Shown here in pieces: positions 30,208 to 63,041 of a DNA stretch of 64,000 bases (the stretch's first letter is position 1; the number at the start of each line of letters is the position of its first letter). The DNA lies in assembly GCA_951828385.1 (NCBI GenBank), contig OX639973.1, forward strand, positions 3,835,200 to 3,899,199, in the 5' to 3' direction. Both the position numbers and the translations under genes were made by a program. The stretch comes from an uncultured Poribacteria bacterium. Its GTDB lineage: Bacteria > Poribacteria > WGA-4E > WGA-3G. Under the pieces are notes generated by a model that was not told where the DNA came from, searched no databases, and worked only from the letters and a program-made list of their open reading frames with translations.

Positions 30208-31878
30208 ATGAAAAAGCGAAATCCATTTCACAAACGCTTTTTTTCTGTAGCCAGACGAAACCTGTTTTTCATACTATTTTTTGGCGTATGCCTGTCGAGT
30301 TGTTCGGGGCGATCTAACGAAGGGGTTGCTCCGACAATGATGCCTGCGTCTACGGAATTCACTTTCAAGCAATACAAAGTCGAAACCGGCATTGCGAAAC
30401 ACCAAACCGTTTTGACCGGTTTTCTTCTTGGTGGTGATTGTGCCGAGCTTGCTGTGGTAAACATTGACGCAAATGGTAACCGGCACTTGCGCATCTACGC
30501 GTTCAGTGAGGACACTTGGGTATCCAAGCTTGACACACCCTTGCGTCCTGAAGTGCTGTTCGTAGATGTCGTAAGTATCGGTGGGCGCGATCGCTTAATC
30601 ACGTACGAACCGGGTCGCCTGAATTGGTTTGATCCGGACTCAGCGAAAGACCGTGCGCTGGTTGAAGTCACTACGAACTACAACGCGACGGGTGAAAGTG
30701 GGGTTCCATATCTTGACATCAGTCGGGACGTAAACGCTGACGGTCTTGACGACTTGGTAGTACCAGACATCGATGGTTTCTGGATCGCCACGCAATTGCC
30801 TGATGGATCGTTCACCGACCCGATAAAACTGGGCCCGCCCGACCCGTTTCTCGACAAAATTGCTTTGGACGATAGTCGCAGTTACCGCGAGGTCGGGATA
30901 ACTCCCTTAACTGTCCATTGGTATCTGAGTCGTCTCCACCAGATGGACTACGACCAAGATGGACGCAGCGATCTCGTATTCTGGAACGCGGACCATTTCG
31001 ATGTTTATCGTCAAGATACGCATGGGATGTTTTCCACAGCGGCAGAGACTTTCACTGTTGACATCCCATTCGACACCGACAGTGCCTACTCGATTGCTTT
31101 TGACTTCAGCGGCGAGAATATGTTCTCGCTCATCTTCGGCTTCAGAAAGAACACCAAGCGGAGGGTGCTGCATACGTTCCAAGACCTGAACGGCGACGGC
31201 GTTTCCGACCTGGTGATCCATTCATTAGAGGGACGGAGCCTTGGGAAACAACGCAGCCTGTACGCGGTGCATTTCGGCACGTCAACACCCAACGGAATCG
31301 TGTTTGCACGGGATGTCAGCATGACAATCCGACCGCGCGGGACTGCTGGCGGATTGCAGCCGTGGGGCTACTCGTCTCAATGGTTGGAAGATCTCGATGG
31401 CGATGGTAATATTGACATTCTGTTCAAAGATGTCCAGACTGGGCTTGTTGGGATGAGCCGCGCCATGATCGGCAAGTCGATTGCGATAGATCTCGAATTC
31501 TATCGCATGGAAAACGACAGGCACCCCGACAAACCCACGACGATGCGTAAAATCAGGCCGGACTTAGATATCTTTGAGAAAGATAGGGTCTTCTTTCCAG
31601 TGGTACTGCTTGGCGATGTGAGCGGTGACGGACGCTCAGACCTGTTGGTTGGAAAGAACTGGGAAGAGCTGCACGTCTTTCTCGGCGTTCCCGGACCGGA
31701 ACTGTTAGCGCGGAAACCTCAAAAGGTGGTAGTCGCTATGCCTAACGACGAGCGAAACGCTCGACTGGTGGACCTCAACGGGGATAACAAGCGAGACCTC
31801 CTCATACATTATCCGTCCTCCACTGATCCGCATCGGGTGACACTGTTGATCGCCCAATATAGTGAAGCCCATAAATAA
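30208..31878 (+). CDS. VCBS/FG-GAP-repeat lipoprotein, C-terminus completed by a MITE
   Basis: 556 residues. A lipoprotein signal ends in CLSSC (Cys at about residue 31). The mature protein has at least six FG-GAP/VCBS repeats with calcium-binding loops such as DVNADGLDDLVV, DQDGRSDLVF, DLNGDGVSDLVI, DLDGDGNIDILF, DVSGDGRSDLLV and DLNGDNKRDLLI, consistent with a seven-bladed propeller exposed at the cell surface or in the periplasm. The last seven residues (YSEAHK region) and the stop codon come from the left end of a family B MITE, so the original C-terminus has been replaced. TetR control is likely. Confidence 0.85.
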   Translation: MKKRNPFHKRFFSVARRNLFFILFFGVCLSSCSGRSNEGVAPTMMPASTEFTFKQYKVETGIAKHQTVLTGFLLGGDCAELAVVNIDANGNRHLRIYAFSEDTWVSKLDTPLRPEVLFVDVVSIGGRDRLITYEPGRLNWFDPDSAKDRALVEVTTNYNATGESGVPYLDISRDVNADGLDDLVVPDIDGFWIATQLPDGSFTDPIKLGPPDPFLDKIALDDSRSYREVGITPLTVHWYLSRLHQMDYDQDGRSDLVFWNADHFDVYRQDTHGMFSTAAETFTVDIPFDTDSAYSIAFDFSGENMFSLIFGFRKNTKRRVLHTFQDLNGDGVSDLVIHSLEGRSLGKQRSLYAVHFGTSTPNGIVFARDVSMTIRPRGTAGGLQPWGYSSQWLEDLDGDGNIDILFKDVQTGLVGMSRAMIGKSIAIDLEFYRMENDRHPDKPTTMRKIRPDLDIFEKDRVFFPVVLLGDVSGDGRSDLLVGKNWEELHVFLGVPGPELLARKPQKVVVAMPNDERNARLVDLNGDNKRDLLIHYPSSTDPHRVTLLIAQYSEAHK

Positions 31879-32026
31879 GTGGACATCTTTGTAGCACAAA
31901 CTTCCAGTTTGTGCTCATACATTATCCGTCCTCCACTGATCCGCATCGGGTGACACTATTGATCGCCCAATATAGTGAAGCCCATAAATAAGTGGACATC
32001 TTTGTAGCACAAACTTCCAGTTTGTG
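31801..32026. repeat. 113-bp tandem duplication of a gene end plus MITE start
   Basis: 31801-31913 and 31914-32026 are nearly identical. The unit contains the last codons of the VCBS gene and the first part of MITE B. The duplication must have happened after the MITE inserted. Confidence 0.85.
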
Positions 32027-32097
32027 CCAGTCTGAATGCCTGTTATAGGTATTCAGACTGTTTGAGAGTGCCCAATTAATTCTAAACTTTACTATAG
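31971..32097. mobile_element. MITE family B, copy 2
   Basis: Full-length copy with TATAGTGAAG and CTTTACTATAG ends and the long hairpin. A partial copy starts at 31858 inside the VCBS gene end. Confidence 0.8.
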
Positions 32098-44766: not shown

Positions 44767-44780
44767 CTATTTCCCCCTTC

Positions 44781-45363
44781 TTATACCAACGCCAGTTTGA
44801 TTAATCACTTTGGATGTGTTGCGGTTCTATTTTCGCATCACAGAGACATCAATTGTAGCACAAACTTCCCAGTTTGTGGCTTCTTATACCAACGCCAGTT
44901 TGATTAATCACTTTGGATGTGTTGCGGTTCTATTTTCGCATCACAGAGACATCAATTGTAGCACAAACTTCATAGTTTGTGGCTTCTTATACCAACGCCA
45001 GTTTGATTAATCACTTTGGATGTGTTGCGGTTCTATTTTCACATCACAGAGACATCAATTGTAGCACAAACTTCGCAGTTTGTGGCTTCTTGTACCAACG
45101 CCAGTTTGATTAATCACTTTGGATGTGTTGCGGTTCTATTTTCGCATCACAGAGACATCAATTGTAGCACAGACTTCCTTCCCAGTTTGTGGCTTCTTAT
45201 ACCAACGCCAGTTTGATTAATCACTTTGGATGTGTTGCGGTTCTATTTTCACATCACAGAGACATCAATTGTAGCACAAACTTCCCAGTTTGTGGCGTAT
45301 ATGACGTCCATTAACAGTGGACGCTACATAAGTCCAACATTTATCAAACTCACGTTATACCAA
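44781..45363. repeat. MITE family A, amplified array of five units
   Basis: Units start at 44781, 44884, 44987, 45090 and 45197 (103, 103, 103 and 107 bp). Each carries the palindrome with arms CACAAACT/AGTTTGTG. Only the last unit has the full right end (...ATCAAACTCACGT at 45354). The whole array is flanked by TTATACCAA on both sides (44781-44789 and 45355-45363), so it began as one insertion and then grew by tandem duplication. Confidence 0.85.
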
Positions 45364-47513: not shown

Positions 47514-47776
47514 TATAGTAAAACCTATAATTAATTGGGCACTCTCAAACAGTCTGAATACCTATAACAGGCATTCAGACTGGCACAAACTGGAAGTGTG
47601 TGCTACAAAGAGGCTGGCACAAACTAAAAGTGTGTGCTACAAAGAGGCTGGCACAAACTAAAAGTGTGTGCTACAAAGAGGCTGGCACAAACTAAAAGTG
47701 TGTGCTACAAAGAGACTGGCACAAACTAAAAGTGTGTGCTACAAAGATGTTTATTTATTTTTAGGATTCACTATAG
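47514..47776. mobile_element. MITE family B, copy 4, with internal 34-bp minisatellite
   Basis: Ends TATAGTA and CACTATAG. Five copies of a 34-bp unit (GGCACAAACTAAAAGTGTG TGCTACAAAGAGGCT-like) start at 47582, 47616, 47650, 47684 and 47718. The unit is the small palindrome plus a few bases, with mutated right arm. This explains why the element is twice the usual size. Confidence 0.85.
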
Positions 47777-50140: not shown

Positions 50141-50402
50141 CTTCAGAACTGATATGTCCACAGGAAATTCTTCCGGGGTGGGCTGCATGCCGCGCACCCC
50201 TCGCGCCGCCTTCAAGGCGCCACTATTTCTATGCCGCCGGCGTTTCTTTCTGCGTTCCGCACACTATCGAAAAGGCGTTCCGCGGGCATATTCCTCTGCT
50301 ATCGGAAGTATCTCTGGACACGTATTTTTATGAAATTCAAACTTATGCCAAAGGTTTTGGACTTAGCAGAACCGAGGCGTTCACGACCACTTTTTGCTAA
50401 CT

Positions 50403-53063
50403 ATGAACATCTTGAAAGATATTATTCAACGCTGTCACCAACGGCGTGAAAAGTCGCTCCAGCAACGGAAAACGGTGATAACCCCGGCACTCTATAAGGC
50501 GGTTCCGTATCATTTTACAGTCTACTGCGCGCATAGATACCCCGTGAAACTCTATGAACTTGAGCAGGCAGATGTCTCATTTATGCCGATAGGTCACGCC
50601 CCGGCGTATGAAAGCGGCCCAACAGATTCTGGCGGTGAACGGTTCTTGACACGCCAAGGCATAGATGATTGGGATGTTAGACAATGGCACGACTCATACG
50701 GAATTCAGGTGTACACAGGTATCCCATCCGCAAGGGATACTGCCCGTTGGCACGATCTCAATTTTACATACGAAGCGGTGTGTGCTGCACCAGATGCTGT
50801 TTCAGTCTGTATTGAGACTTTGGTTAACATCGTCGCAAACCCACTACTGACAATTACAAAGTCTGGTGGACTGCGCTTCTCATGCCGAGTTCGAGATTAC
50901 CTCCACCCGAATACTGAGGCAGCAAGGCAGTACATCTATAAGCGGACACCAACGCCAGAAAACGCATATCAACGAGAGGTATACCTTGAAATCTTTGGGG
51001 ACAAGGGATTCAATCGTTGGGATGGACGTTACGAGATTCTGCTCGGTAATCTGTTAGATCCACCTATAATTTCCAAAGAGGTGCTCTTTACACCTATTGA
51101 CGCGCTCCGCGATACGCTTCACCAACCGGTGATGCTTGGTGAAAAGGGGCTGCAATCTGTTGTCTTAGATCATCCTGAAGTGGCACCAGCATCCTCGGGG
51201 TCACATAATTTAGACCTTGCGAAACAGGCACTTATAAAACGCGATTTCTCGTATATCAAGCCAGAGTCTGACACGCTGCTTGCTGTGCGGGACGGAAAAC
51301 TCAGCCCATTGGCGATAAAACGTCCACCCATAGTGCTGCAAAAGTCAGGAGAAGCGCGAAAGGATTATGAAACACTTGAAAATAACGCCGTTCAGATACA
51401 ACGCGTTTTTGATGGGAGTGCACGCGTTCTTGCACTTATTGCTGAGAAAGGTGGCGGGAAAAGTTACGGTGTAGAGACTTATGTCCTCAACAGCGGTGCG
51501 ATAAACCTAAGGGCGGAAGTGCCTCAAATCTTCTTGAATCCAAGATATAGCGAAACGGTGGAAGAGCTCCTTGGACAGGATGATGAAACAGAACGGCTCT
51601 GTATTTTGGACAACGTGCAAAACTACGAACTGTTTTCTGAATGCAGGTTATCAATGGATATATTGGAGGCGTGGAGCGTCAGTTGGCAAGGACATGCCTT
51701 GGGGCATTTTGCTAAAGCCTTACTAAACGCCGTAGAAAACACAGGGGACCCAGATGAGAGTGCTGTCAGACGGATTCGTACAACGCTGCACGCCTTTGAA
51801 AGGCAGGCAGACGACCTGATTCAACAGATGTACCAAGCGAACGTGACCGGCACGGTGTCGGCGCGTGCGTCCATTTCGGATCCACATTGGACGTTTTGGC
51901 ATCGGTTGCAGCATTTTTTTGCGTATTATAAGCGGGATGCCGATGCACCGATGATCTGGTATCAGAACGCCCTAGAGTTTTGGGTACCGCCCCTGCTGCA
52001 TCGGCGCGTCAAACGGCTGCTGTTAATGTCATCAAGCCTCACCGAACGAGATGTCCGCCAAGCGTTTCCGAATACAGAAATTGAAGTGACTCGCCTCAAA
52101 CCGACAGCCTGGGTCGCGGGGAACAAGGTTTTTCAGATACGTACGGATCCTTACCTGTCCGAAACGCTTTTAGAATACTATCACAATTGGAATATTCTCG
52201 GCGTGTCTAAAACAGGGCAGCGCATTTTCTCGGGTATCCGGGCAGAAATTGAACGCGACCCAAGTGTTAAGCATGCGATCGTCACTTATATGCCGATTGT
52301 CAAACAGTTGAAAGATATTTTGGAAATAGAGAATGTCTGTCTTGTATCGCATTTCAAAGACCGGAGCAAGTTTGCATCCGCTTTTGAAGAAGCACAGGTT
52401 GTTTGGATCGTCGGTACACCGAATTGGGCACCGGGTATCATTTGGCGGCGGTCACAGATTCTGTATGGCGCCGACGAAAGGCCGCTCTCGTATGAGACAG
52501 ATACGGAGTCTTATCGGTATAAAGATGAACGCGTTCAGCGTGTTTATGAACAGCATACTGTTGGGAAGCTTTCAGAAATTGTAGGGCTTACTGGACTGAA
52601 TCGTTCATCAGGTAAGACGGTTGTGTTGGTTACAAGCGTTCCATTGCCGGACATTACCGACAGACCTGAAGTGCTGCTCTTTGACTGGGAAGATTTTGAG
52701 GTTGCTGGTGGATTAAACAAACTCCCTGAGACGATAGCAATACGCGAGCGTTTTGAAATTGAACGTGCTCACATCACCGCGGACACCCGTAGAACTGAAG
52801 TGGAACGTATTTTGGGGTGGTGTTCCGCAAGACAGGCAAACCGAGTATTGCATAAATTAAGGGGTGGGAACATTCCACGTGTGCTTTTCCGAAAACAGAT
52901 TTTCGCTCTGCTGGCGAATGGCGAGAGAAAGGCATCAGAACTGGTTGAAGCCATTGAAGGTCATCCGACATCAATAAGAAACGAACTCACGCGTCTCTTG
53001 AATGCTGGTGAAATTGTGAAAGTACGATGGGGTGTATATTCGCTGCCGCCACCAACTGAATGA
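50403..53063 (+). CDS. Orphan helicase-like P-loop ATPase, possible primase-like N-terminus and winged-helix tail
   Basis: 886 residues from ATG 50403; no good RBS is seen, and TTG 50394 is possible. Residues about 60-175 contain QVYTGIPSARDTARWHDLNF and LTITKSGGLRFSCRVRDYL, faintly like the primase-polymerase layout, but this is weak. Walker A is AEKGGGKSYG at about 347-356, a Walker B-like strand is RLCILDNVQN (Asp about 403), then MSSSLTERD (SF2 motif III-like) and LTGLNRSSGKTVVL (motif VI-like). The last 90 residues form a winged helix (KQIFALLANGERKASELVEA, TSIRNELTRLL). A role in DNA replication or repair of a mobile unit is an inference only. Confidence 0.6.
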   Translation: MNILKDIIQRCHQRREKSLQQRKTVITPALYKAVPYHFTVYCAHRYPVKLYELEQADVSFMPIGHAPAYESGPTDSGGERFLTRQGIDDWDVRQWHDSYGIQVYTGIPSARDTARWHDLNFTYEAVCAAPDAVSVCIETLVNIVANPLLTITKSGGLRFSCRVRDYLHPNTEAARQYIYKRTPTPENAYQREVYLEIFGDKGFNRWDGRYEILLGNLLDPPIISKEVLFTPIDALRDTLHQPVMLGEKGLQSVVLDHPEVAPASSGSHNLDLAKQALIKRDFSYIKPESDTLLAVRDGKLSPLAIKRPPIVLQKSGEARKDYETLENNAVQIQRVFDGSARVLALIAEKGGGKSYGVETYVLNSGAINLRAEVPQIFLNPRYSETVEELLGQDDETERLCILDNVQNYELFSECRLSMDILEAWSVSWQGHALGHFAKALLNAVENTGDPDESAVRRIRTTLHAFERQADDLIQQMYQANVTGTVSARASISDPHWTFWHRLQHFFAYYKRDADAPMIWYQNALEFWVPPLLHRRVKRLLLMSSSLTERDVRQAFPNTEIEVTRLKPTAWVAGNKVFQIRTDPYLSETLLEYYHNWNILGVSKTGQRIFSGIRAEIERDPSVKHAIVTYMPIVKQLKDILEIENVCLVSHFKDRSKFASAFEEAQVVWIVGTPNWAPGIIWRRSQILYGADERPLSYETDTESYRYKDERVQRVYEQHTVGKLSEIVGLTGLNRSSGKTVVLVTSVPLPDITDRPEVLLFDWEDFEVAGGLNKLPETIAIRERFEIERAHITADTRRTEVERILGWCSARQANRVLHKLRGGNIPRVLFRKQIFALLANGERKASELVEAIEGHPTSIRNELTRLLNAGEIVKVRWGVYSLPPPTE

Positions 53064-53288: not shown

Positions 53289-53569
53289 TATAGTAAAACC
53301 TATAATTAATTGGGCACTCTCAAACAGTCTGAATACCTATAACAGGTATTCAGACTGGCACAAACTGGAAGTTTGTGGTACGCATGTGTCTATTTAATCC
53401 ATTTTGATTAATGATTTCGGATATGTTGCGGCTCTATTTTCGTATCACACAGCGGTGAGTTGTAGCACAAACTTCCCAGTTTGTGCAGTATAGAACAGAA
53501 ATTAACAGGCGCGCGACATAAGTCCAACATTTATCAAACTCACGTTATTTATTTTTCGGATTCACTATA
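53289..53569. mobile_element. MITE family B, copy 6, interrupted by MITE A
   Basis: B runs 53289-53396 and 53546-53569. MITE A (53397-53545, 149 bp) sits inside with the direct repeat TATTTA on both sides (53391-53396 and 53546-53551). Restoring the site gives the intact sequence of copy 5. Confidence 0.85.
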
Positions 53570-53710
53570 AAATATCAATAACTTGAGACGCGTATGTGCG
53601 TGGAAACCGTCAAGGTGTTGGGTTTCTCTCAGTTTTCTGTTTGACATGCCTTTACGATGCGGTCTGAGTCTTGTGTTCCTTTTCAGCGTTTTGTGAATAT
53701 CCGTTCAACC

Positions 53711-53790
53711 TCCCTCGTAGCAATCAACGAGATAGCGAAACCCAACCTCCCAAAGGGTGTCGTTATTATAGGTTTCCGTTGGGTTTCACT
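53711..53790. repeat. Repeat family E, copy 2
   Basis: Second copy of the 80-bp direct repeat, 560 bp from the first. The DNA between 53570 and 53915 shows no gene. Confidence 0.8.
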
Positions 53791-53915
53791 CGGTTTGGCG
53801 CGTAGATGGTCAGATTTTTTTCAGTTTTTAGTAACCCAGAAACAGGTATGAGCGTTATCTTTCAAGAAGGAACCTTGAAATGGAACGCGTCCCCGCGTGT
53901 TCTGGGATTTTTTTC

Positions 53916-54267
53916 TTGACAAATTATGCGAAACATGCTTTAATTCGTTCTAAATATCATATTAGGTCAAAAAAAGTAGTTTTTAATTTGACAAATATGA
54001 GGAATTAGGTTATAATTAAAGTATAAAGTCGTTTTGAATATCATATTAAGTCAGAAAAAACGATTTTTAATTTGACAAGTATGAGGAATTAGGTTATAAT
54101 TAAACGATAATGCCGTTCTAAATATCATGTTAGGTCAAAAAAAGTAGTTTTTAATTTGACAAGTATGAGGAATTAGGTTATAATTAAACGATAACGCCGT
54201 TCTAAATATCATATTAAGTCAGAAAAACGATTTTTAATTTGACAAATGTAAGGAATGGTATTATAAT
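53916..54267 (+). promoter_or_regulatory. Array of five tandem sigma70 promoters
   Basis: TTGACA with 17-bp spacers: 53916-53921/TTTAAT 53939-53944; 53988-53993/TATAAT 54011-54016; 54072-54077/TATAAT 54095-54100; 54156-54161/TATAAT 54179-54184; 54239-54244/TATAAT 54262-54267. The last four units repeat with period 83-84 bp and carry an A/T-rich upstream block (AAAAAAAGTAGTTTTTAATT) before each -35, which could act as an UP element. All face the small HTH gene and the giant surface-protein gene. Confidence 0.85.
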
Positions 54268-54357: not shown

Positions 54358-54570
54358 ATGCCGAGACGAGTCAGTACGAAGCAACTTTTAATGGCCTGCC
54401 AGATGTCATTTGAAGGAAAAAGCAATCGCGAAATCGCTGACACGCTCGGTTTCACCGAGACGACTGTCTCGAATTGGCGTAAGTTGGAAGTCTGGCAAGA
54501 ATTCGAGGCGGAACTGATTAAGGCGTACAAGGAACAAGTGTTAAACTTCGAAAGCGCAACCCCCTCGTAA
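54358..54570 (+). CDS. Small HTH DNA-binding protein
   Basis: 70 residues; a G/A-rich RBS (CAGGGGGGAATTTCGC region) precedes ATG 54358. Residues 8-46 make a homeodomain-like HTH (QLLMACQMSFEGKSNREIAD followed by TLGFTETTVSNWRKL), similar to the N-terminal HTH of terminase small subunits or transposase regulators. No phage genes are nearby. It stands directly after the promoter array and 205 bp before the large surface-protein gene, so it may autoregulate that transcript. Confidence 0.65.
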   Translation: MPRRVSTKQLLMACQMSFEGKSNREIADTLGFTETTVSNWRKLEVWQEFEAELIKAYKEQVLNFESATPS

Positions 54571-54775
54571 TTTCGGTGTTTTAATTTTCGGTGTTTATAA
54601 CTCAAAAACGCGGGCATCCTGACGTAAGAGCCCCGCATACAAAAAGGTTAGTTTATTTGTTTTTTAGAATGGGTTTACTTCCCTGAATCCATTCGACTGT
54701 TGAATGGAAGTCACGCTGAAAGGCGTGAACTTAACAAATTTTTTTTTCTATTTACATTTTGGAGGAAAATAACCT
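54571..54775 (+). promoter_or_regulatory. Structured 5' leader of the giant surface-protein gene
   Basis: Two small hairpins: CATTC-7-GAATG (54690-54706) and TCACGC-6-GCGTGA (54711-54728), followed by a T-run (54740s) and GGAGG 10 nt before the start. A weak GCGGG/CCCGC stem lies at 54610-54636. No separate promoter is evident, so transcription may come from the array upstream. Confidence 0.4.
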
Positions 54776-57700
54776 ATGTCAAATCGATTGACATTTTCCT
54801 TAGCAAGTTTAAGTTTAATTTTCGCATTGGTCTTTAGTGCGATGCCTGTGATGGCACACGATGGGCATGATGCAGATCCTGGTCATCCCACAGTGGATAT
54901 TGTGGAGGGAGCATATACTACAGCGAACGCGAAAGCTCGTGGCAATTTTAGAATAAAAATTGTTGCCAAAGTTGGCGCGTCAACGGATTCAGCCCTTTTT
55001 GATTCCGATGATGATCTTGATGTTGATGATGTGGCTGTCAAGACTTATACTGCTGATGGTACACCTGGAACCCTTCCGACTTCCGAAATTACGGTGACTG
55101 CAGAGATTGGCAACGTTGCTGGTAAGCATGAGTTGGAAATCTCTCTAGACCTTAGCGATACTGCTTATCAGAGTGTTAGAAGCATCCAAGTGGTCGTTGC
55201 AGCAAATGGTGTTAATGGCAACCGTGTGGGAGCTGAGGGTGGTAACGAAGCGACAACTAAGACTTTTGATAGCTTACCATCGGTGGTGCCTAACATGGCA
55301 GCGATGGCGGTTGCGCAAAAGAAGGATGCTAACGATATGGCGATACCGGGTAGGTATACGCTAACCGTTACGTTTACAAATGCGGATGGTACTCCGGCTA
55401 CAGCTAACCCCAATCCCCAACCTGCGCTAAGCGATATCATGATTGAGATGAAGGATAGCGCAACGCCAGTTGATAGTAATGGTGATGCGATAACGGATCT
55501 TGCTCAGCTATTAACTGATGATGCCACTGCCGACGATGGGATTTACGCTCAGGATTACCAGTTGACGTTTGGTACTAGGATGGTAACCTTTACGCTTGTT
55601 GATGGTTATGCCGCTAATAGTCCCAGCGCGGTGATAGATCTGGATGCGGTAGTACCAGATCCGGTCTACCAAAATCCGCCAGATATTACGCTTACTGTGG
55701 TTGGGCACAACGAAGCTGATAAGTCGTTTCAGATCAGTGTTTCCACGACTCCTACTGCTGATACTGATGGTGAAGCAGGGGCAGATATAGATGGTGCTGA
55801 TATCAGAGCGAACTTGATGATCGAGGACGGTAGCACACCTGCAGGTGATGTGGGTGTTAATCTCCTTGATGGTGATGCTGCAAATGAAAGAATTGGTCCC
55901 AATAGTTATCGAGCATTCTTAGAGTATGGTCCGTTCGATACCTTGCCGTTGACTATAAGTATAGACCCCAATGCTCTCTCAGATAATGCGGATGCAGCTG
56001 ATGTAGATCCTGTGACGGCTATGGTCGGCGATGGTGGGCCCCCGGTTGTTACACCCGGTGCACCCGATGCCCCGACGCTCGATATGGCGACAGCCGGAGA
56101 TATGGAAGTTACCTTAACGTGGACAGCCGCGACCACAGGTGATGCTGCTACATCGTTTGAGTATCGTCTGGACGGTGAAATTGAAAGTCCAATCATTGAC
56201 AGTGATGCTACGACAACCAGGCACACGGTAACAGGTCTGACCAATGGAACGCCATACGACTTTGAAGTGCGTGGCGTTAATGCGGCTGGTGGTGGCGCGT
56301 GGAGTAATTCATTGCCCGCAACGCCGATGGCACCAATGGTAACAGACACTATGAATCCGACGGTGGAGATTACGGTGCTGAGCGTTGATGGGAACGGGAA
56401 GCATACCCTGGACGCTGATGGTAATGTGAGATTTGATCTCCTTTTCTCTGAAGAGTTGGCAAAAGGAAACAGTGTTAGTCGTCTTCAGGCGGCGGACTTT
56501 TTTGTTACGCGTAACGGCCAGATCATGATACTACCTGGGACGGCACTGAGTGCTGCCATGCCGACTACGATGGCTGCTACCACGGCTCCTTCTGGTAATC
56601 AAGAGAGATATATCTTAACGATCGCCGCGGGTACTGATCCGCAGGAAATACAGATTCAACTTTTTGGACTTGAAGTGCTTGGCGGGCAAGTGGCGGATCC
56701 GAGTGGTAATCCACTCGTTCAAACGGATGCGATTAGCAAGTTTGATACGATCCCGCCGGATGTGCGCATTACGGTTGTTGGTGCCAGTGCCGTGAGTGGG
56801 ACACCTTTCACGTTCTCGGGTGAGCCAAAGTCCAAATTAACGTTCCGATTTGCTTTTACTGAAGAGTTGTCTCCAGCATTTACAACAACTGATATACATA
56901 GATCGGTTGGTGGTGATAACTTCAGATTGCTGGCAGATTCTGATCCTCGACCGGTGCCGGGTGTGCCTAATGCCTACACGGTGGTCGTGACGGCTATCGA
57001 CATGAATCAGTCGACAACGGTTCTGATCAAAAGATTGGAAATAGCGGATGCTGCTAAGAATCAACTTCAAAACGATAGGTATGCAACTTATGCGCCTGCA
57101 ACAACTGCACCGGTCGCAACTATTACAGCACCTGATATCTTCAATTGTGGTATAGACGGTAATCCGGTAACAGTCACTATCACTGACAATGAAGCTATCG
57201 GTTCAGGTGAAGGTATAGCCGCGGGCGAGATTACAGTGAGTACGGGTTGGCAGATCCGAACAGGTTCTTTCAGTGCTCCCCCTGCTGGTGCTAATACTAA
57301 GACCGTAAGGGCTACGTTTAACGTCATTCGTAAGGATGTTGAGAACGGAGCTGACCGGAGTTGGCTCGGTATTCAAGAGGTGACCATTACAGTCGCAGCA
57401 GATGCTGTTAAGGATGACACGAATCGGGGGAACGCAGCAAAGTCCGATACCAATACTGCTGGTCCCGTGATCACGGTTCCTGCTGGTCAGTATGTCGTCG
57501 TTATCAGAGATAATGCGTGGCGGACCTCACACCTCAACTTCGTCAGAACCCTTTACCTCGGTGACTATAACGTTAGAGCCGAGAATGTCCAGGTTCAGAC
57601 TTGGGACTGCATGCCAGATTTGGGGTTGATCTTTGATGTGACCGTGGATGCCTCTCCAGGTATTGGCGGTGGTGGCCTCATGGTCTTGCAATCTCGGGAT

Positions 57701-60076
57701 CATAAAGATACAGCGAATCCGACTATTGCCAAAGGTACTGTCGGTATCAGCGAAATCATGTGGTCTGAAGATAGAGGTTTACCGTTCGGTGCTACATCTA
57801 ATCTCCAGCATGCACGAGAGCAGTGGATTGAACTTCACAATACCAATACTTTCGACGTTAAAGTTACGTTGTTTGAGCTGATAAGAACGGAAGCGTATCG
57901 TACCAACGACGCAAGCCGTGCGGGCTTAATCGATGTAATGGGTAACTACGATATTGGCGGTCGTTGGGATGTTCAGGTTAAAAACGATGATGGCAGTCCG
58001 AAATATGGTACGGACGGCAATAGTGAATTCGGTCATGATTTCGTCAGTATGAAGCGCGTGGCACCTGCTGCAGATAAAAACTACGCACATGGTGAGAAAC
58101 AGGGTCGTAATGCAGGACATTGGTCCGCATCGACTTCTGTATACTACACCAAGAGAGCGGGTTTGGCAGGTACAGGTCAGATTCCACTTGACGATCTGAA
58201 CTATGACTTCGTGGGTTCACCAGGTCGTGCCAATACTTTCTCTGCTCCAGGTCCGATTACACGAACGAATCTTCCGAAGAACCTTATTTTCACCGAGGTC
58301 GCGAACCGTAGAGACCAAACGTTGGAATGGATTGAGCTGAAGAACAACTCTGACGCTGAAATCAATCTGAAGAAATATCAGATTTCTTACGTGACGGCGA
58401 AAGGTACCGATACACTGCTCTACAACTTCCCGGACAACGATAATATCAAGCTCGCAGCGGGTGAGTTGTTACTCCTCTTGGACACGGATCCGAGAGATAA
58501 CGATGCGCATCCGATCGCAGTTGCATTCAACCGCGATGGCGGCAACGATCAGGGGCTCGGTATTGGTGCTGACGCGATAAAGTATAAGGTTGCGAATTTC
58601 GCCGAAGGCGGACTACCGAACGACGGTAAATTCGTGTTGATCCTGCGTAACAGAAACGATAGGCTCAAATCGCATGAAGGCGTTTTAGACGCTATCGGGT
58701 ATTCTGATAATCTCAAGGATGATTCTCTGCATACGACTCTCTGGCCGTTGAAAGTCTTTGGTGGTCTAGATGCCAGAAACACGATAGCAGTAGAGACTGT
58801 CCATCGCCGTCAACATGTGATAGACCCGGATAAGAACACACATGGCGACGACAAAGATGAGCATCAGGCACTACGCGATGTCGGTTATACGGGCATCGGT
58901 TATAAGCGCCATGCACAGCGGATTGCAGCGAACGGTGGTACCCCTGGCTACGAGGACACTCGGAAGAACGAGGTTCCCCAAGTCACGGCTACCGGAACTT
59001 TAACCATCAGCGAGATTATGTACGATCAAGGTGATGGTGAGTATCCGCAGTGGATCGAGATCTATAACAGTTCTCCGACCGATCCGGTTAATCTTCATGC
59101 TGGTGATCATGGCTGGAGACTGATCATCGAGAACTTTGATGATGGCGAGATTCCAGTAAAACGCTTGTCTGGGACGCTTAACTTTAGAAGCAGCGATGTC
59201 CAGACGATTTTGCCACAGCAAACCGTGATGATCGCTTCAACACGTGCGAGAAACTCCGGTAGTGCGTTCTTCGATACACGTGTCATCTTCCCAGCAACGC
59301 GCGTCTTCTCCGTTTGGGATGATGCACGCGGTGAATTGGATATGACACGCTCCACGGATCCGATCCTCAGCGATAAAGGTTTCTATATCGAGCTGATTGA
59401 CGGTAAAGGTAACTTCGCTGATGGCGTAGGTAACCTCGTCAAATCTCCGAACCGTCGTGTCGCGGCTAATAAGGCATGGGAATTGTCCGATGTCACCGGC
59501 GAAATGATGGACGATATGGGACGTAGTTCCATACTCCGTAAATATCGCGACCTTAAGACGAAGACGCGATATTCTGACGCTGAAATCGAAGCGATGGGTG
59601 TCGAGGCCGCTGGCTGGCTCGCTGCACATGAAACGGACTTCCGTGATGTTCGCGAGACGTGGTATGGTCATGGGGATGACATCGGTTCCCCCGGTATCAC
59701 CGGTGGACGTGTCCTGCCTGTGAGCTTGTCGAAGTTCCGTCCGGAACGGCTCGAGAGTGGTGCCATCGTTATCCGTTGGGTCACCGAATCTGAAACGAAC
59801 AACGCTGGATTCAATATCCTGCGGAGTGAAACCAAAGACGGTGAATTCAAGCAGATTAACACGAAATTGATCGCAGGTCACGGTACGACGAGTGAGCGTA
59901 ATACTTACACGCATACCGATACATCTGCGAAGCCCAATGTTGTTTACTACTACCAGATTCAGGATGTCTCTCTTGATGGTAAAGTCCAAACCCTACGGAT
60001 GAGCCGTCTGAAAGGACATATCTCACCTGCTGGTAAAGCAACAACGACATGGGGTGAACTAAAAGCGTTGCAATAA
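54776..60076 (+). CDS. Giant secreted surface protein with fibronectin III and lamin-tail domains
   Basis: 1766 residues. The signal peptide (LASLSLIFALVFSAMPVMA) cleaves before HDGHDADPGH, a His/Asp-rich stretch. Residues about 430-515 form a fibronectin III domain (PDAPTLDMATAGDMEVTLTW). Two Ig/cadherin-like domains follow to about 900. Three lamin-tail domains are marked by ISEIMWSEDRGLPFG, IFTEVANRRDQTLEWIELKN and ISEIMYDQGDGEYPQWIEIYN. Near the end, LSKFRPERLESGAIVIRWVT starts a last Fn3-type domain. The tail is ATTTWGELKALQ with the TT[TL]WGxLK motif. It may form a surface layer or matrix; its promoter array suggests high expression. Confidence 0.85.
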   Translation: MSNRLTFSLASLSLIFALVFSAMPVMAHDGHDADPGHPTVDIVEGAYTTANAKARGNFRIKIVAKVGASTDSALFDSDDDLDVDDVAVKTYTADGTPGTLPTSEITVTAEIGNVAGKHELEISLDLSDTAYQSVRSIQVVVAANGVNGNRVGAEGGNEATTKTFDSLPSVVPNMAAMAVAQKKDANDMAIPGRYTLTVTFTNADGTPATANPNPQPALSDIMIEMKDSATPVDSNGDAITDLAQLLTDDATADDGIYAQDYQLTFGTRMVTFTLVDGYAANSPSAVIDLDAVVPDPVYQNPPDITLTVVGHNEADKSFQISVSTTPTADTDGEAGADIDGADIRANLMIEDGSTPAGDVGVNLLDGDAANERIGPNSYRAFLEYGPFDTLPLTISIDPNALSDNADAADVDPVTAMVGDGGPPVVTPGAPDAPTLDMATAGDMEVTLTWTAATTGDAATSFEYRLDGEIESPIIDSDATTTRHTVTGLTNGTPYDFEVRGVNAAGGGAWSNSLPATPMAPMVTDTMNPTVEITVLSVDGNGKHTLDADGNVRFDLLFSEELAKGNSVSRLQAADFFVTRNGQIMILPGTALSAAMPTTMAATTAPSGNQERYILTIAAGTDPQEIQIQLFGLEVLGGQVADPSGNPLVQTDAISKFDTIPPDVRITVVGASAVSGTPFTFSGEPKSKLTFRFAFTEELSPAFTTTDIHRSVGGDNFRLLADSDPRPVPGVPNAYTVVVTAIDMNQSTTVLIKRLEIADAAKNQLQNDRYATYAPATTAPVATITAPDIFNCGIDGNPVTVTITDNEAIGSGEGIAAGEITVSTGWQIRTGSFSAPPAGANTKTVRATFNVIRKDVENGADRSWLGIQEVTITVAADAVKDDTNRGNAAKSDTNTAGPVITVPAGQYVVVIRDNAWRTSHLNFVRTLYLGDYNVRAENVQVQTWDCMPDLGLIFDVTVDASPGIGGGGLMVLQSRDHKDTANPTIAKGTVGISEIMWSEDRGLPFGATSNLQHAREQWIELHNTNTFDVKVTLFELIRTEAYRTNDASRAGLIDVMGNYDIGGRWDVQVKNDDGSPKYGTDGNSEFGHDFVSMKRVAPAADKNYAHGEKQGRNAGHWSASTSVYYTKRAGLAGTGQIPLDDLNYDFVGSPGRANTFSAPGPITRTNLPKNLIFTEVANRRDQTLEWIELKNNSDAEINLKKYQISYVTAKGTDTLLYNFPDNDNIKLAAGELLLLLDTDPRDNDAHPIAVAFNRDGGNDQGLGIGADAIKYKVANFAEGGLPNDGKFVLILRNRNDRLKSHEGVLDAIGYSDNLKDDSLHTTLWPLKVFGGLDARNTIAVETVHRRQHVIDPDKNTHGDDKDEHQALRDVGYTGIGYKRHAQRIAANGGTPGYEDTRKNEVPQVTATGTLTISEIMYDQGDGEYPQWIEIYNSSPTDPVNLHAGDHGWRLIIENFDDGEIPVKRLSGTLNFRSSDVQTILPQQTVMIASTRARNSGSAFFDTRVIFPATRVFSVWDDARGELDMTRSTDPILSDKGFYIELIDGKGNFADGVGNLVKSPNRRVAANKAWELSDVTGEMMDDMGRSSILRKYRDLKTKTRYSDAEIEAMGVEAAGWLAAHETDFRDVRETWYGHGDDIGSPGITGGRVLPVSLSKFRPERLESGAIVIRWVTESETNNAGFNILRSETKDGEFKQINTKLIAGHGTTSERNTYTHTDTSAKPNVVYYYQIQDVSLDGKVQTLRMSRLKGHISPAGKATTTWGELKALQ

Positions 60077-60245: not shown

Positions 60246-60395
60246 TACGATTTTTTCTGCGAAAAAATCTTTTGGTTGTTAGTTATAGTAGAGTCAATAA
60301 TTACTTATACATTGCGAAAGATAGACGATGCAAATCCATAGAGAAAAACATAACATTTATGCTGCTTATAGCAGCTTATATTGAAGGAGTTAACT

Positions 60396-63041
60396 GTGCT
60401 TAGAAAGCTTAGAAAATCCCACATTCTGTTTTTAATTTGCGTTTTTGGGTTCGCCCTTTGTTTGACAAACGGGTTCGCTGATGAGGGACTGCCCCCCATT
60501 CTTGAGTTCCCAACCGCTGATGGCGCGGGATATATACAAGGCAACGCTGAATTTCAAAGGGGCCCCGATAGAATCATCGGTACCAATGATTTTGAAAAGA
60601 TGCGGGACCTCCCGCGCGATAGTCAAGACTACCAACTTGGCACCAAAATCGGCTGGTTTTTTATAGCGTCTCGGAACAATCCGGACCGAGGCTGGATCTG
60701 TACCGGCTTTTTGGTGGGTCCCGATCTGTTTATGACGAACCACCACTGTATTCATGACGATGACGGTCTCCTCCCGATTGCGGGTGCCAAAATTTTCATG
60801 GATTATTATCAGGATCGCGATGTGGATCCGACGTTCGGCGGTGTCACAGCGAGCGTGACAGAGATTTTACGGATGGATGAACCTAAGGACTACGCGCTCC
60901 TGAGACTCGATACGCCGATCGGGGATACTTATGGATGGCTCGAACTGGATACGGAGGCTGGCTTCAATTCGAGTCAGAGCGTGAAACTGATTTCGCATCC
61001 CGATGGCAGGTCGAAAGAGATTGTCCGGCGCAACACTGAAATCGTGGATATTCCTGCGGGACATCCCTTGGCGGATGCTCCGTCCGCGCTGGCGTATCTT
61101 GCAGACTCTGAGGGTGGCTCCTCCGGTTCACCGGTTTTCCTGCGTGAGGGAACGACCGTTATTGGAATCCATCATTCCGCTTGGACCCGCGGTGGCGTGC
61201 CAACCTTTAATGCCGGCACTTTGATGTCGTACATTGTGCCTGAAATCCAACAGTGGTTGCCGAGCGGGCCGCCTACGCCGCCTGGACCACCAATTGACCC
61301 ACCACAGCCACCACCTACGGTGACAGGCATCCACATGTACTGGACAGATACGGGGGCAGGGCAGATTCAGCGCGCAAACCTCGACGGCTCTGATGTTGCA
61401 GACCTCGTCCAGGGATTGACAACCCCAACGGATATTGCTGTGGATGTAACAGGTGAAAAAATATATTGGACAGATGCGGGGTTAGGGCAGATTCAGCGCG
61501 CAAACCTTGACGGGTCTAATGTTGAATACCTTATCACAGGACTGAGCAGCCCAACCGGTATCGCCTTGGATGTTGCAGGCAATAACGTCTATTGGACAGA
61601 TACGCTCACGGGTGCAATCCAGCGTGCGAACCTCGACGGCTCTAATGTTGAAGACCTCATCTTCGGATTGATATCGCCAACCGGTATCGCCTTGGATGCT
61701 GTAGGCAATAATGTCTATTGGACAGATACGGGGTTAGGGCAGATTCAGCGCGCAAACCTTGACGGTTCAGACCGCCAAGACCTCATCACAGGACTGAGCA
61801 GCCCAACCGGTATCGCCTTGGATGTCACAGGGAATAAAATCTATTGGACAGATACGGGGGCGGGCGTGATCCAGTGTGCTGACTTGGACGGTTTCAACCA
61901 GCAAGACCTCATCTTCGGATTGATATCGCCAACCGGTATCGCCTTGAATGTGCAAGAGAATCAGATGCATTGGACAGATACGGGGGCGGGTGCAATTCAG
62001 CGTGCGAACCTCGACGGTTCAAGCCGCGTAGACCTCATCACAGGATTGTTGTCGCCAGCCGGTATTACCCTCAGTATACCAGAGATGGGCGGAACCCTGG
62101 TCTTTAATCCGAGCAGCATCCCGGATCAGACGTTCACTGTCGGTCAGGCAGTGAGTCTCCAATTGCCCGCGCCCACGGGTGGCACTCGGCCATACAGCTA
62201 TACCCTCACCCCGGGACTCCCGGCAGGTCTATACTTTGATCCCGTCGGCGATGCTTATGGGTTTATCGGTGGCACACCTACCATAGCCGCGTCGCCACGC
62301 CTCTACACTTACACCGCTACAGATGCAAGGGGTGCGTCTGCTGCTTTGACATTCACGATTACGGTAACAAGTACCACGCGTGTGGATGTCAATGGCGATG
62401 GCGTGGTGGATGTCGCGGACCTTGTGATTGTCGCGATGGCTTACGGGACGCGAGTGCCAGCGGGTACCGATCTTCCCGCGGATGTCAATTTGGATCTCGT
62501 TGTTAACCTGTTAGATCTCACGCTTGTTGCACAGGCGATTGATGCTGCTGGTGGTGGTGCGAATGCGCCTTCTCTCGGCGATATAGTAGCGGTCGCCGAG
62601 GCATCGAACGCCTTATCGGGTGGAAACCTCGCATACCGCAATGTTGCCAATGCGCTTGCCGATGCGAAACTCGAAAAAGGGATACCCGAAACCGTGCTGC
62701 AAGCACTGCAGCGCCTACTCATAGAAATGGAAATGGCAGAGATACCCGAATCAACAGCACTGTTGCCGAACTATCCGAACCCGTTCAATCCTGAAACGTG
62801 GATACCGTATCACTTGGCAACCGATGCGGACGTAACATTGACAATCTACGATCTGCGTGGCGGCGTTGTACAGCAGTTGAGTTTGGGACATCAGGCGGCT
62901 GGCGTTTACGAGAGCCGTGGGCGTGCAGCGTATTGGGATGGTAAAAATCAACTCGGTGAACACGTCGCGAGTGGCCTCTATTTCTATACGCTCACCGCGG
63001 GCGAATTCACCGCAACCCGAAAGATGCTGATAGCGAAGTAA
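60396..63041 (+). CDS. Secreted serine protease with YWTD propeller, dockerin and FlgD-type C-terminal domain
   Basis: 881 residues from GTG 60396, 6 nt after AAGGAG; a longer frame from TTG 60381 includes the RBS. Signal peptide LFLICVFGFALCLTNGFA. Residues about 75-275 are a trypsin-like protease with His in MTNHHCIHD, Asp in PKDYALLRLD and Ser in EGGSSGSPVF. A Pro-rich linker follows. Six YWTD/LDL-receptor class B repeats (YWTDTGAGQIQRANLDGSDV type) make one six-bladed propeller. Then a putative Ig domain, a dockerin-like pair (VDVNGDGVVDVADL, DVNLDLVVNLLDL), and a tail LLPNYPNPFNPETWIPY with FlgD-like sorting features. Confidence 0.9.
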   Translation: MLRKLRKSHILFLICVFGFALCLTNGFADEGLPPILEFPTADGAGYIQGNAEFQRGPDRIIGTNDFEKMRDLPRDSQDYQLGTKIGWFFIASRNNPDRGWICTGFLVGPDLFMTNHHCIHDDDGLLPIAGAKIFMDYYQDRDVDPTFGGVTASVTEILRMDEPKDYALLRLDTPIGDTYGWLELDTEAGFNSSQSVKLISHPDGRSKEIVRRNTEIVDIPAGHPLADAPSALAYLADSEGGSSGSPVFLREGTTVIGIHHSAWTRGGVPTFNAGTLMSYIVPEIQQWLPSGPPTPPGPPIDPPQPPPTVTGIHMYWTDTGAGQIQRANLDGSDVADLVQGLTTPTDIAVDVTGEKIYWTDAGLGQIQRANLDGSNVEYLITGLSSPTGIALDVAGNNVYWTDTLTGAIQRANLDGSNVEDLIFGLISPTGIALDAVGNNVYWTDTGLGQIQRANLDGSDRQDLITGLSSPTGIALDVTGNKIYWTDTGAGVIQCADLDGFNQQDLIFGLISPTGIALNVQENQMHWTDTGAGAIQRANLDGSSRVDLITGLLSPAGITLSIPEMGGTLVFNPSSIPDQTFTVGQAVSLQLPAPTGGTRPYSYTLTPGLPAGLYFDPVGDAYGFIGGTPTIAASPRLYTYTATDARGASAALTFTITVTSTTRVDVNGDGVVDVADLVIVAMAYGTRVPAGTDLPADVNLDLVVNLLDLTLVAQAIDAAGGGANAPSLGDIVAVAEASNALSGGNLAYRNVANALADAKLEKGIPETVLQALQRLLIEMEMAEIPESTALLPNYPNPFNPETWIPYHLATDADVTLTIYDLRGGVVQQLSLGHQAAGVYESRGRAAYWDGKNQLGEHVASGLYFYTLTAGEFTATRKMLIAK

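What the first reader, a model, noticed from the sequence alone, without database searches (positions are those of the whole stretch)
53916..54267. Five consensus sigma70 promoters in tandem
Five TTGACA boxes each have a -10 box (TATAAT in four, TTTAAT in one) exactly 17 bp away, in units of 72-84 bp, all pointing at the HTH gene and then the giant surface protein. Array growth by duplication with preserved promoter parts suggests selection for very strong expression, or sites for a repressor, perhaps the HTH protein itself.
Basis: partly seen in the sequence, partly recalled or inferred. Interest (0 to 1): 0.75.

Follow-up and report, generated by a model that had tools for sequence, protein, structure and literature searches.

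The report
Tandem promoter array before surface-protein gene
In a sponge-symbiont type bacterium (Poribacteria), four perfect and one conserved variant "on-switch" sequences are lined up in front of a small DNA-binding-protein gene and a giant surface-protein gene, and related species have repeatedly built their own versions of the same arrangement, which points to selection for very strong and perhaps tunable production of the surface protein.

Summary
Five TTGACA boxes start at 53916, 53988, 54072, 54156 and 54239, each 17 bp from a -10 box (TTTAAT once, TATAAT four times), spaced 72/84/84/83 bp, all on the + strand before a 70-aa HTH gene and a 1766-aa surface protein. The genome (6.66 Mb, Poribacteria-like) uses this consensus: 138 perfect matches against 2 for the control. 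It is not chance: three of only five such closely spaced pairs in 40 genomes lie here.

Comparison changes the picture. (1) The TTTAAT "promoter" is not a decayed copy; it is conserved with TGN-TTTAAT in seven other loci. (2) Orthologous arrays exist, and units diverged to about 61% identity keep all 12 promoter bases in 10 of 12 cases. (3) Other congeners amplified different promoter units (about 166 or 215-220 bp) at the same place. (4) An own-genome paralog keeps two tandem promoters although its HTH gene is deleted, so the array serves surface-protein expression. (5) Each unit carries a motif whose only exact genome copies lie in the array, a candidate HTH site (untested).

Best reading: a recurrently rebuilt, very strong sigma70 tandem-promoter cassette; a new variant of a known kind.

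The parts
53832..53912 (+). Terminator-like hairpin with T-run just upstream of the array; resembles the 3' half of a conserved sRNA-like element
   Evidence: Hairpin -28.1 kcal/mol, z -3.7; R1 model match 53802-53908 at 23.4 bits, but a reverse-strand match at 27.2 bits shows mainly that the stem is a palindrome; terminator-like site 53881-53904; conserved in L095 and L097
53916..53944 (+). P1: TTGACA-17-TTTAAT with TGN before the -10; conserved variant promoter, not part of the 84-bp repeat
   Evidence: same TTGA(C/G)A-14-TGN-TTTAAT in 7 further loci, each 61-72 bp before a perfect promoter
53946..54256 (+). 84-bp tandem repeat array, 3.7 copies
53988..54016 (+). P2: TTGACA-17-TATAAT
54072..54100 (+). 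P3: TTGACA-17-TATAAT
54156..54184 (+). P4: TTGACA-17-TATAAT
54239..54267 (+). P5: TTGACA-17-TATAAT, gene-proximal, about 84 nt leader to the HTH start codon
53960..53974 (+). Unit motif TATTAGGTCAAAAAA (candidate operator); further copies at 54044-54058, 54128-54142 (1 mismatch), 54212-54226
   Evidence: All three exact matches to TATTARGTCARAAAA in the 6.66-Mb genome are in the array; conserved at near-fixed distance before the promoters in L095 and L097
54358..54570 (+). 70-aa helix-turn-helix protein, candidate locus-specific regulator
   Evidence: GerE PF00196 24.1 bits vs cut-off 23.5; AF2 pLDDT 86.5, HTH plus long C-terminal helix; close homologs 69-89% identical next to related surface genes
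54571..54775 (+). Conserved HTH-to-surface-gene spacer with GAATGGGTTTAYTTCCCTGAATCCATTC hairpin-like element and GGAGG ribosome site
   Evidence: Same elements upstream of many surface genes in congeners
54776..60076 (+). 1766-aa secreted/surface protein: signal peptide, fn3, two lamin-tail (LTD) domains; presumed product of the array
   Evidence: relatives in 30 of 40 genomes

Best explanation
The array is a cluster of real, very strong housekeeping-sigma (sigma70-type) promoters. Successive promoters load RNA polymerase onto the same transcription unit (70-aa HTH gene, then the giant surface protein), so output adds up. The cluster grew by tandem duplication of a promoter unit, and promoter bases were kept by selection while the rest of each unit drifted. 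Related species rebuilt comparable clusters from other units at the same place. Shown: sequence grammar, conservation of the promoter bases, recurrence, co-occurrence with surface genes, persistence without the HTH gene. Inferred: that all promoters fire, that HTH and surface gene are co-transcribed, that the product is abundant, and that the HTH protein modulates the cluster by binding the motif in each unit.
For: Perfect consensus x4 with constant 17-bp spacer; the consensus is genome grammar, 138 vs 2 control. Units defined by the flanking motif: 10 of 12 keep all 12 hexamer bases, mean identity elsewhere 0.615; 12 random other columns give 0.57 intact units on average and never 10 in 20,000 draws; the same-geometry scan peaks exactly at the hexamers. 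Promoters of 11/12 or better within 1 kb upstream of HTH homologs: 1.49/kb on the gene strand vs 0.07/kb on the other strand and 0.02-0.05/kb elsewhere. 13 of 14 loci of the close HTH group have two or more (11 of 14 without the sRNA promoter). TTTGACTTAAT-type promoters: 28 in 40 genomes, 0 in control, mostly before surface genes and often in tandem. Paralog L145 keeps two promoters 219 bp apart with the HTH deleted. Synthetic precedent: tandem core-tac promoters raise E. coli output stepwise up to five copies, about 4.4-fold (PMC3293061).
Against: No transcription data. Closely spaced strong promoters can interfere with one another. The gene-proximal unit has decayed in both orthologous arrays (L095, L097), so not every copy is needed. 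P1 lacks the -11 A that matters for melting (own knowledge). UP-like A/T content upstream of the -35 (0.79) is only about 1.5 sd above other perfect promoters of the genome. The published poribacterial transcriptome, in the passages read here, does not report such a gene (PMC5087111). More distant HTH subfamilies usually have one promoter only or none.
Confidence: 0.72

Rival explanations
1. The array is mainly a set of operator sites: the HTH protein (autoregulator) binds the AATATCATATTNNGTCARAAAA motif next to each -35 and represses or activates all promoters cooperatively, giving a switch-like response.
For: The motif's exact copies in the genome are all in the array and the HTH gene is single-copy in this genome. 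The motif is conserved before promoter-defined units in three species. A similar ATATTAAGNCA.AAA element follows the -10 in the TTGACTTAAT-type loci.
Against: No binding evidence. Tandem promoters persist where the HTH is deleted (L145) or not detected (G003). The strict motif is sparse in other loci. The A/T tracts may simply be UP elements.
Confidence: 0.4
2. The array is a neutral tandem duplication; tandem repeats in a strong-promoter region expand and contract and carry the promoter along.
For: The 168-bp super-period and unequal copy content between species show ordinary duplication. Gene-proximal units decayed in two species.
Against: Hexamers are intact in 10 of 12 diverged units; different promoter units were amplified at the same place in several congeners; tandem consensus pairs are rare elsewhere.
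Confidence: 0.12
3. The array is a phase-variable or recombinational switch for surface variation (invertible promoters or a donor for cassette recombination), because the same 5' cassette precedes many different mature surface proteins.
For: Promoter-HTH-leader-signal peptide parts are shared among divergent surface proteins.
Against: No inverted repeats flank the array. Several loci per genome each have their own promoters, so there is no single expression site.
Confidence: 0.08

Closest known systems
Natural tandem promoters of abundant surface/cell-wall protein genes (e.g. the multi-promoter cell-wall-protein operon of Brevibacillus brevis; own knowledge, not found in the held library)
   Same: Several sigma-type promoters in a row in front of a cell-surface protein gene, read as a means of very high expression.
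   Different: There, as far as I recall, the promoters are distinct sequences; here they are tandem duplications of one near-perfect unit, followed by a small HTH gene, in Poribacteria, and rebuilt in congeners from other units.
Engineered tandem core-tac promoter clusters (PMC3293061)
   Same: Head-to-tail copies of one consensus-type promoter; output rises with copy number up to five.
   Different: Synthetic, E. coli; here natural, with an extra conserved unit motif and an HTH gene as first gene.
E. coli kps region 1 with three tandem promoters and IHF (PMC5738388, abstract only)
   Same: Natural tandem promoters of a surface-structure gene cluster.
   Different: Not presented as tandem repeats of one unit; promoters are coupled by supercoiling and regulated by growth phase.
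LuxR/GerE-type HTH domains and phage phBC6A51 protein (2ao9)
   Same: HTH fold with a long helix; PF00196 just above cut-off; best structure match 2ao9 at Z 7.1.
   Different: Stand-alone 70 aa, no sensor domain; Z of this size can reflect a common arrangement only; function unknown.

Membership tests
sigma70-type consensus promoter | TTGACA and TATAAT separated by 17 bp | tested here: met
   Four perfect copies; fifth has TTTAAT
sigma70-type consensus promoter | consensus used genome-wide | tested here: met
   138 vs 2 in control pattern
sigma70-type consensus promoter | mapped transcription starts | not testable with these tools
   no transcript data available
sigma70-type consensus promoter | UP element upstream of -35 | tested here: inconclusive
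   A/T 0.79 vs 0.64 sd 0.10 for 30 other perfect promoters
tandem-promoter surface protein operon | two or more promoters in series, same direction, before a surface-protein gene | tested here: met
tandem-promoter surface protein operon | abundant surface-layer product | not testable with these tools
   no SLH or S-layer family hit in the protein; abundance unknown
operator array of an autoregulator | regulator gene adjacent and single-copy, sites locus-specific | tested here: met
operator array of an autoregulator | regulator binds the repeat | not testable with these tools
   needs EMSA or DAP-seq
invertible (phase-variable) promoter | inverted repeats flanking the promoter segment | tested here: not met
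   only inverted repeats found lie at 53617-53790, not flanking the array
LuxR/GerE HTH domain | PF00196 above curated cut-off | tested here: met
   24.1 vs 23.5 bits, 28 residues only, several other HTH families close

The most novel reading that the evidence does not exclude
Poribacteria of this genus carry a dedicated expression module for giant surface proteins: a small RNA gene, a recurrently amplified array of near-perfect promoters each with its own operator, and a tiny HTH protein encoded first in the operon that reads the array. Promoter copy number and HTH level together set surface-protein output, and the module is reused before many different surface proteins.
Probability: 0.3. Interest if true: 0.65.

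Novelty: new variant of a known kind. Interest (0 to 1): 0.52.

Why it matters
Natural head-to-tail arrays of near-perfect consensus promoters look rare here: closely spaced perfect pairs were found in only 2 of 40 genomes searched. This one suggests that evolution repeatedly reached the design that engineers use to overexpress genes, at one gene family, in an uncultured sponge-symbiont lineage. It marks which surface proteins these symbionts probably make in bulk, gives ready-made strong promoters for the phylum, and offers a comparative system for how promoter copy number is selected.

Tried and rejected
DNA search with the whole array in 40 genomes found only weak 38-nt matches; orthologous arrays came through the HTH protein instead. 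Rfam gave nothing above threshold for the region or for the sRNA element. The first tandem-pair pattern (15-45 bp gap) missed the array because its gap is 55 bp; repeated with 45-75 bp. CRISPR-like or iteron readings were considered and dropped: the repeat is promoter-bearing, few copies, same strand, next to a protein gene. Conservation of the unit motif is partly by construction (units were found by it), so repeats it with promoter-defined units. The 5' leader hairpin that holds the GGGGGG ribosome site in its loop is only mildly significant (z -2.2) and folds differently in L095 and L097. RNAalifold on the sRNA shows no two-sided compensatory changes, so its structure rests on folding and conservation only. 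Foldseek gave no PDB match at E <= 0.001 for the HTH model. No open-access paper on Brevibacillus tandem promoters was found.

Full report
What is there. The sequence holds five TTGACA boxes at the stated places, each 17 bp before a -10 box: TTTAAT for the first, TATAAT for the other four. The steps are 72, 84, 84 and 83 bp. Tandem Repeats Finder sees 3.7 copies of 84 bp (86% matches) and a better 168-bp super-period (91%), so a two-unit block was probably duplicated. The reversed-pattern control shows that the consensus is real promoter grammar in this genome: 138 matches against 2 in 6.66 Mb. Closely spaced perfect tandem pairs are rare: five in 40 genomes, three of them in this array.

Where it is. 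The window lies in a single 6.66-Mb contig. Named relatives that carry the HTH gene are all Poribacteria MAGs. Downstream are a 70-aa HTH protein (54358-54570) and, 205 bp later, a 1766-aa protein with signal peptide, fn3 and two lamin-tail domains. Upstream is a hairpin with a T-run that looks like a terminator, ending just before P1.

Orthologous arrays. HTH homologs occur in 15 of 40 genomes searched and 45 GTDB loci. Many sit before surface-type proteins with a shared signal peptide (MSNRLTFSLASLI and variants). Two loci, L095 and L097, have arrays homologous to ours with about 83-bp units: a conserved P1, three perfect promoters and one decayed gene-proximal unit. Other loci amplified different units: 215-220 bp with TTGACTTAAT-type promoters (L066, L067, L068, L089) and 166-167 bp containing the P1+P2 pair (L082/L104, L102). 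Of 14 loci of the close HTH group with enough upstream sequence, 13 have at least two promoters of 11/12 or better in 1 kb; leaving out the promoter of the small RNA, 11 do (my count). On the gene strand the density is 1.49/kb against 0.02-0.07/kb elsewhere. The more distant HTH groups mostly have one such promoter 81-90 bp before the HTH start, or none.

Selection on the promoter parts. Twelve units from three species, found by their upstream motif rather than by the promoter, average 61.5% identity outside the hexamers, yet 10 keep all 12 hexamer bases. Twelve random other columns leave 0.57 units intact on average and never 10 in 20,000 draws, and a scan with the same 6-17-6 geometry peaks exactly at the hexamers. 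This is the strongest evidence that the boxes work.

P1 is different. TTGA(C/G)A-14-TGN-TTTAAT occurs in seven further loci, always 61-72 bp before a perfect promoter. It is a conserved element, not a failed copy. The TGN resembles an extended -10; the missing -11 A suggests a weaker or assisted promoter (inference from general promoter knowledge).

Role of the HTH protein. The AF2 model is a confident HTH with a long C-terminal helix; the nearest folds are phBC6A51 (2ao9, Z 7.1), LuxR/GerE domains and terminase small-subunit DNA-binding domains. Every unit carries AATATCATATTNNGTCARAAAA just before the -35; its core's three exact genomic copies are all in the array, and the HTH gene is single-copy in this genome. 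That makes it a candidate for reading the array. But the paralog at G000:C1:3791500-3799500 keeps two tandem TTGACTTAAT promoters 219 bp apart while only the last 22 codons of its HTH gene remain, and the G003 locus has tandem promoters and the surface gene with no HTH found. So the promoters serve the surface gene; the HTH role is additional and unproven.

Mechanism. Most likely several polymerases load in series and transcription sums, giving high expression of a surface protein. Engineered tandem core-tac promoters in E. coli behave this way, rising stepwise to five copies and about 4.4-fold (PMC3293061). Whether Poribacteria do the same is untested, and the poribacterial transcriptome paper consulted does not mention such a gene in the passages read (PMC5087111).

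A neighbouring find. At ten loci a conserved 118-nt element with a strong hairpin follows a TTGACTTAAT-(17/18)-GTATAAT promoter. It matches no Rfam family. A covariance model finds strong copies (E below 1e-20) in 9 of 40 genomes, all of this genus and mostly at surface-protein loci, including one in this genome at 3798712-3798827. The hairpin just before P1 in the window resembles its 3' half; the sequence alignment supports this, while the model match is modest and also scores on the reverse strand.

Verdict. Repressor or activator sites for the HTH protein remain possible. The thing is a new, comparatively well-documented variant of a known kind.

Noticed in passing
G000:C1:3798712-3798827 (minus), window 53832-53908, L080, L081, L092, L098, L100, L132, L157, L169, L171: Conserved 118-nt small-RNA-like element with its own promoter near surface-protein loci of this genus; no Rfam family; strong copies in 9 of 40 genomes.
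   Followed up: partly
L145 (G000:C1:3791500-3799500): Second surface protein (1578 aa, 56% identical over 1361 residues) with tandem promoters but a deleted HTH gene, of which only the C-terminal 22 codons remain.
   Followed up: yes
L146 (G000:C1:1347500-1354000): Third paralog is split into two overlapping frames (394 and 1048 aa) and has no strong promoter upstream; probably a decaying copy.
   Followed up: no
window 54571-54775: Spacer between HTH and surface gene is conserved across loci, with hairpin-like GAATGGGTTTAYTTCCCTGAATCCATTC; a possible leader element.
   Followed up: partly
L113, L117, L120, L123-L127: In two genomes many near-identical HTH copies sit at contig starts, 0-46 bp from the edge, so assemblies break just upstream; in two uncut loci (L076, L087) the C-terminal end of another surface-type gene lies directly upstream.
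   Followed up: partly
window 31801-32027, 44777-45296, 47580-47747, 53455-53485: Dispersed TTGTAGCACAAACTTCCCAGTTTGTG-type repeats, partly in tandem arrays (103 bp x 5, 34 bp x 5).
   Followed up: no
window 50394-53063: 889-aa ORF without any significant Pfam or NCBIfam match, directly upstream of the array region.
   Followed up: no
window 60381-63041: Downstream gene combines a trypsin-like domain, LDL-receptor class B repeats, a dockerin-type region and a T9SS-type sorting tail.
   Followed up: no
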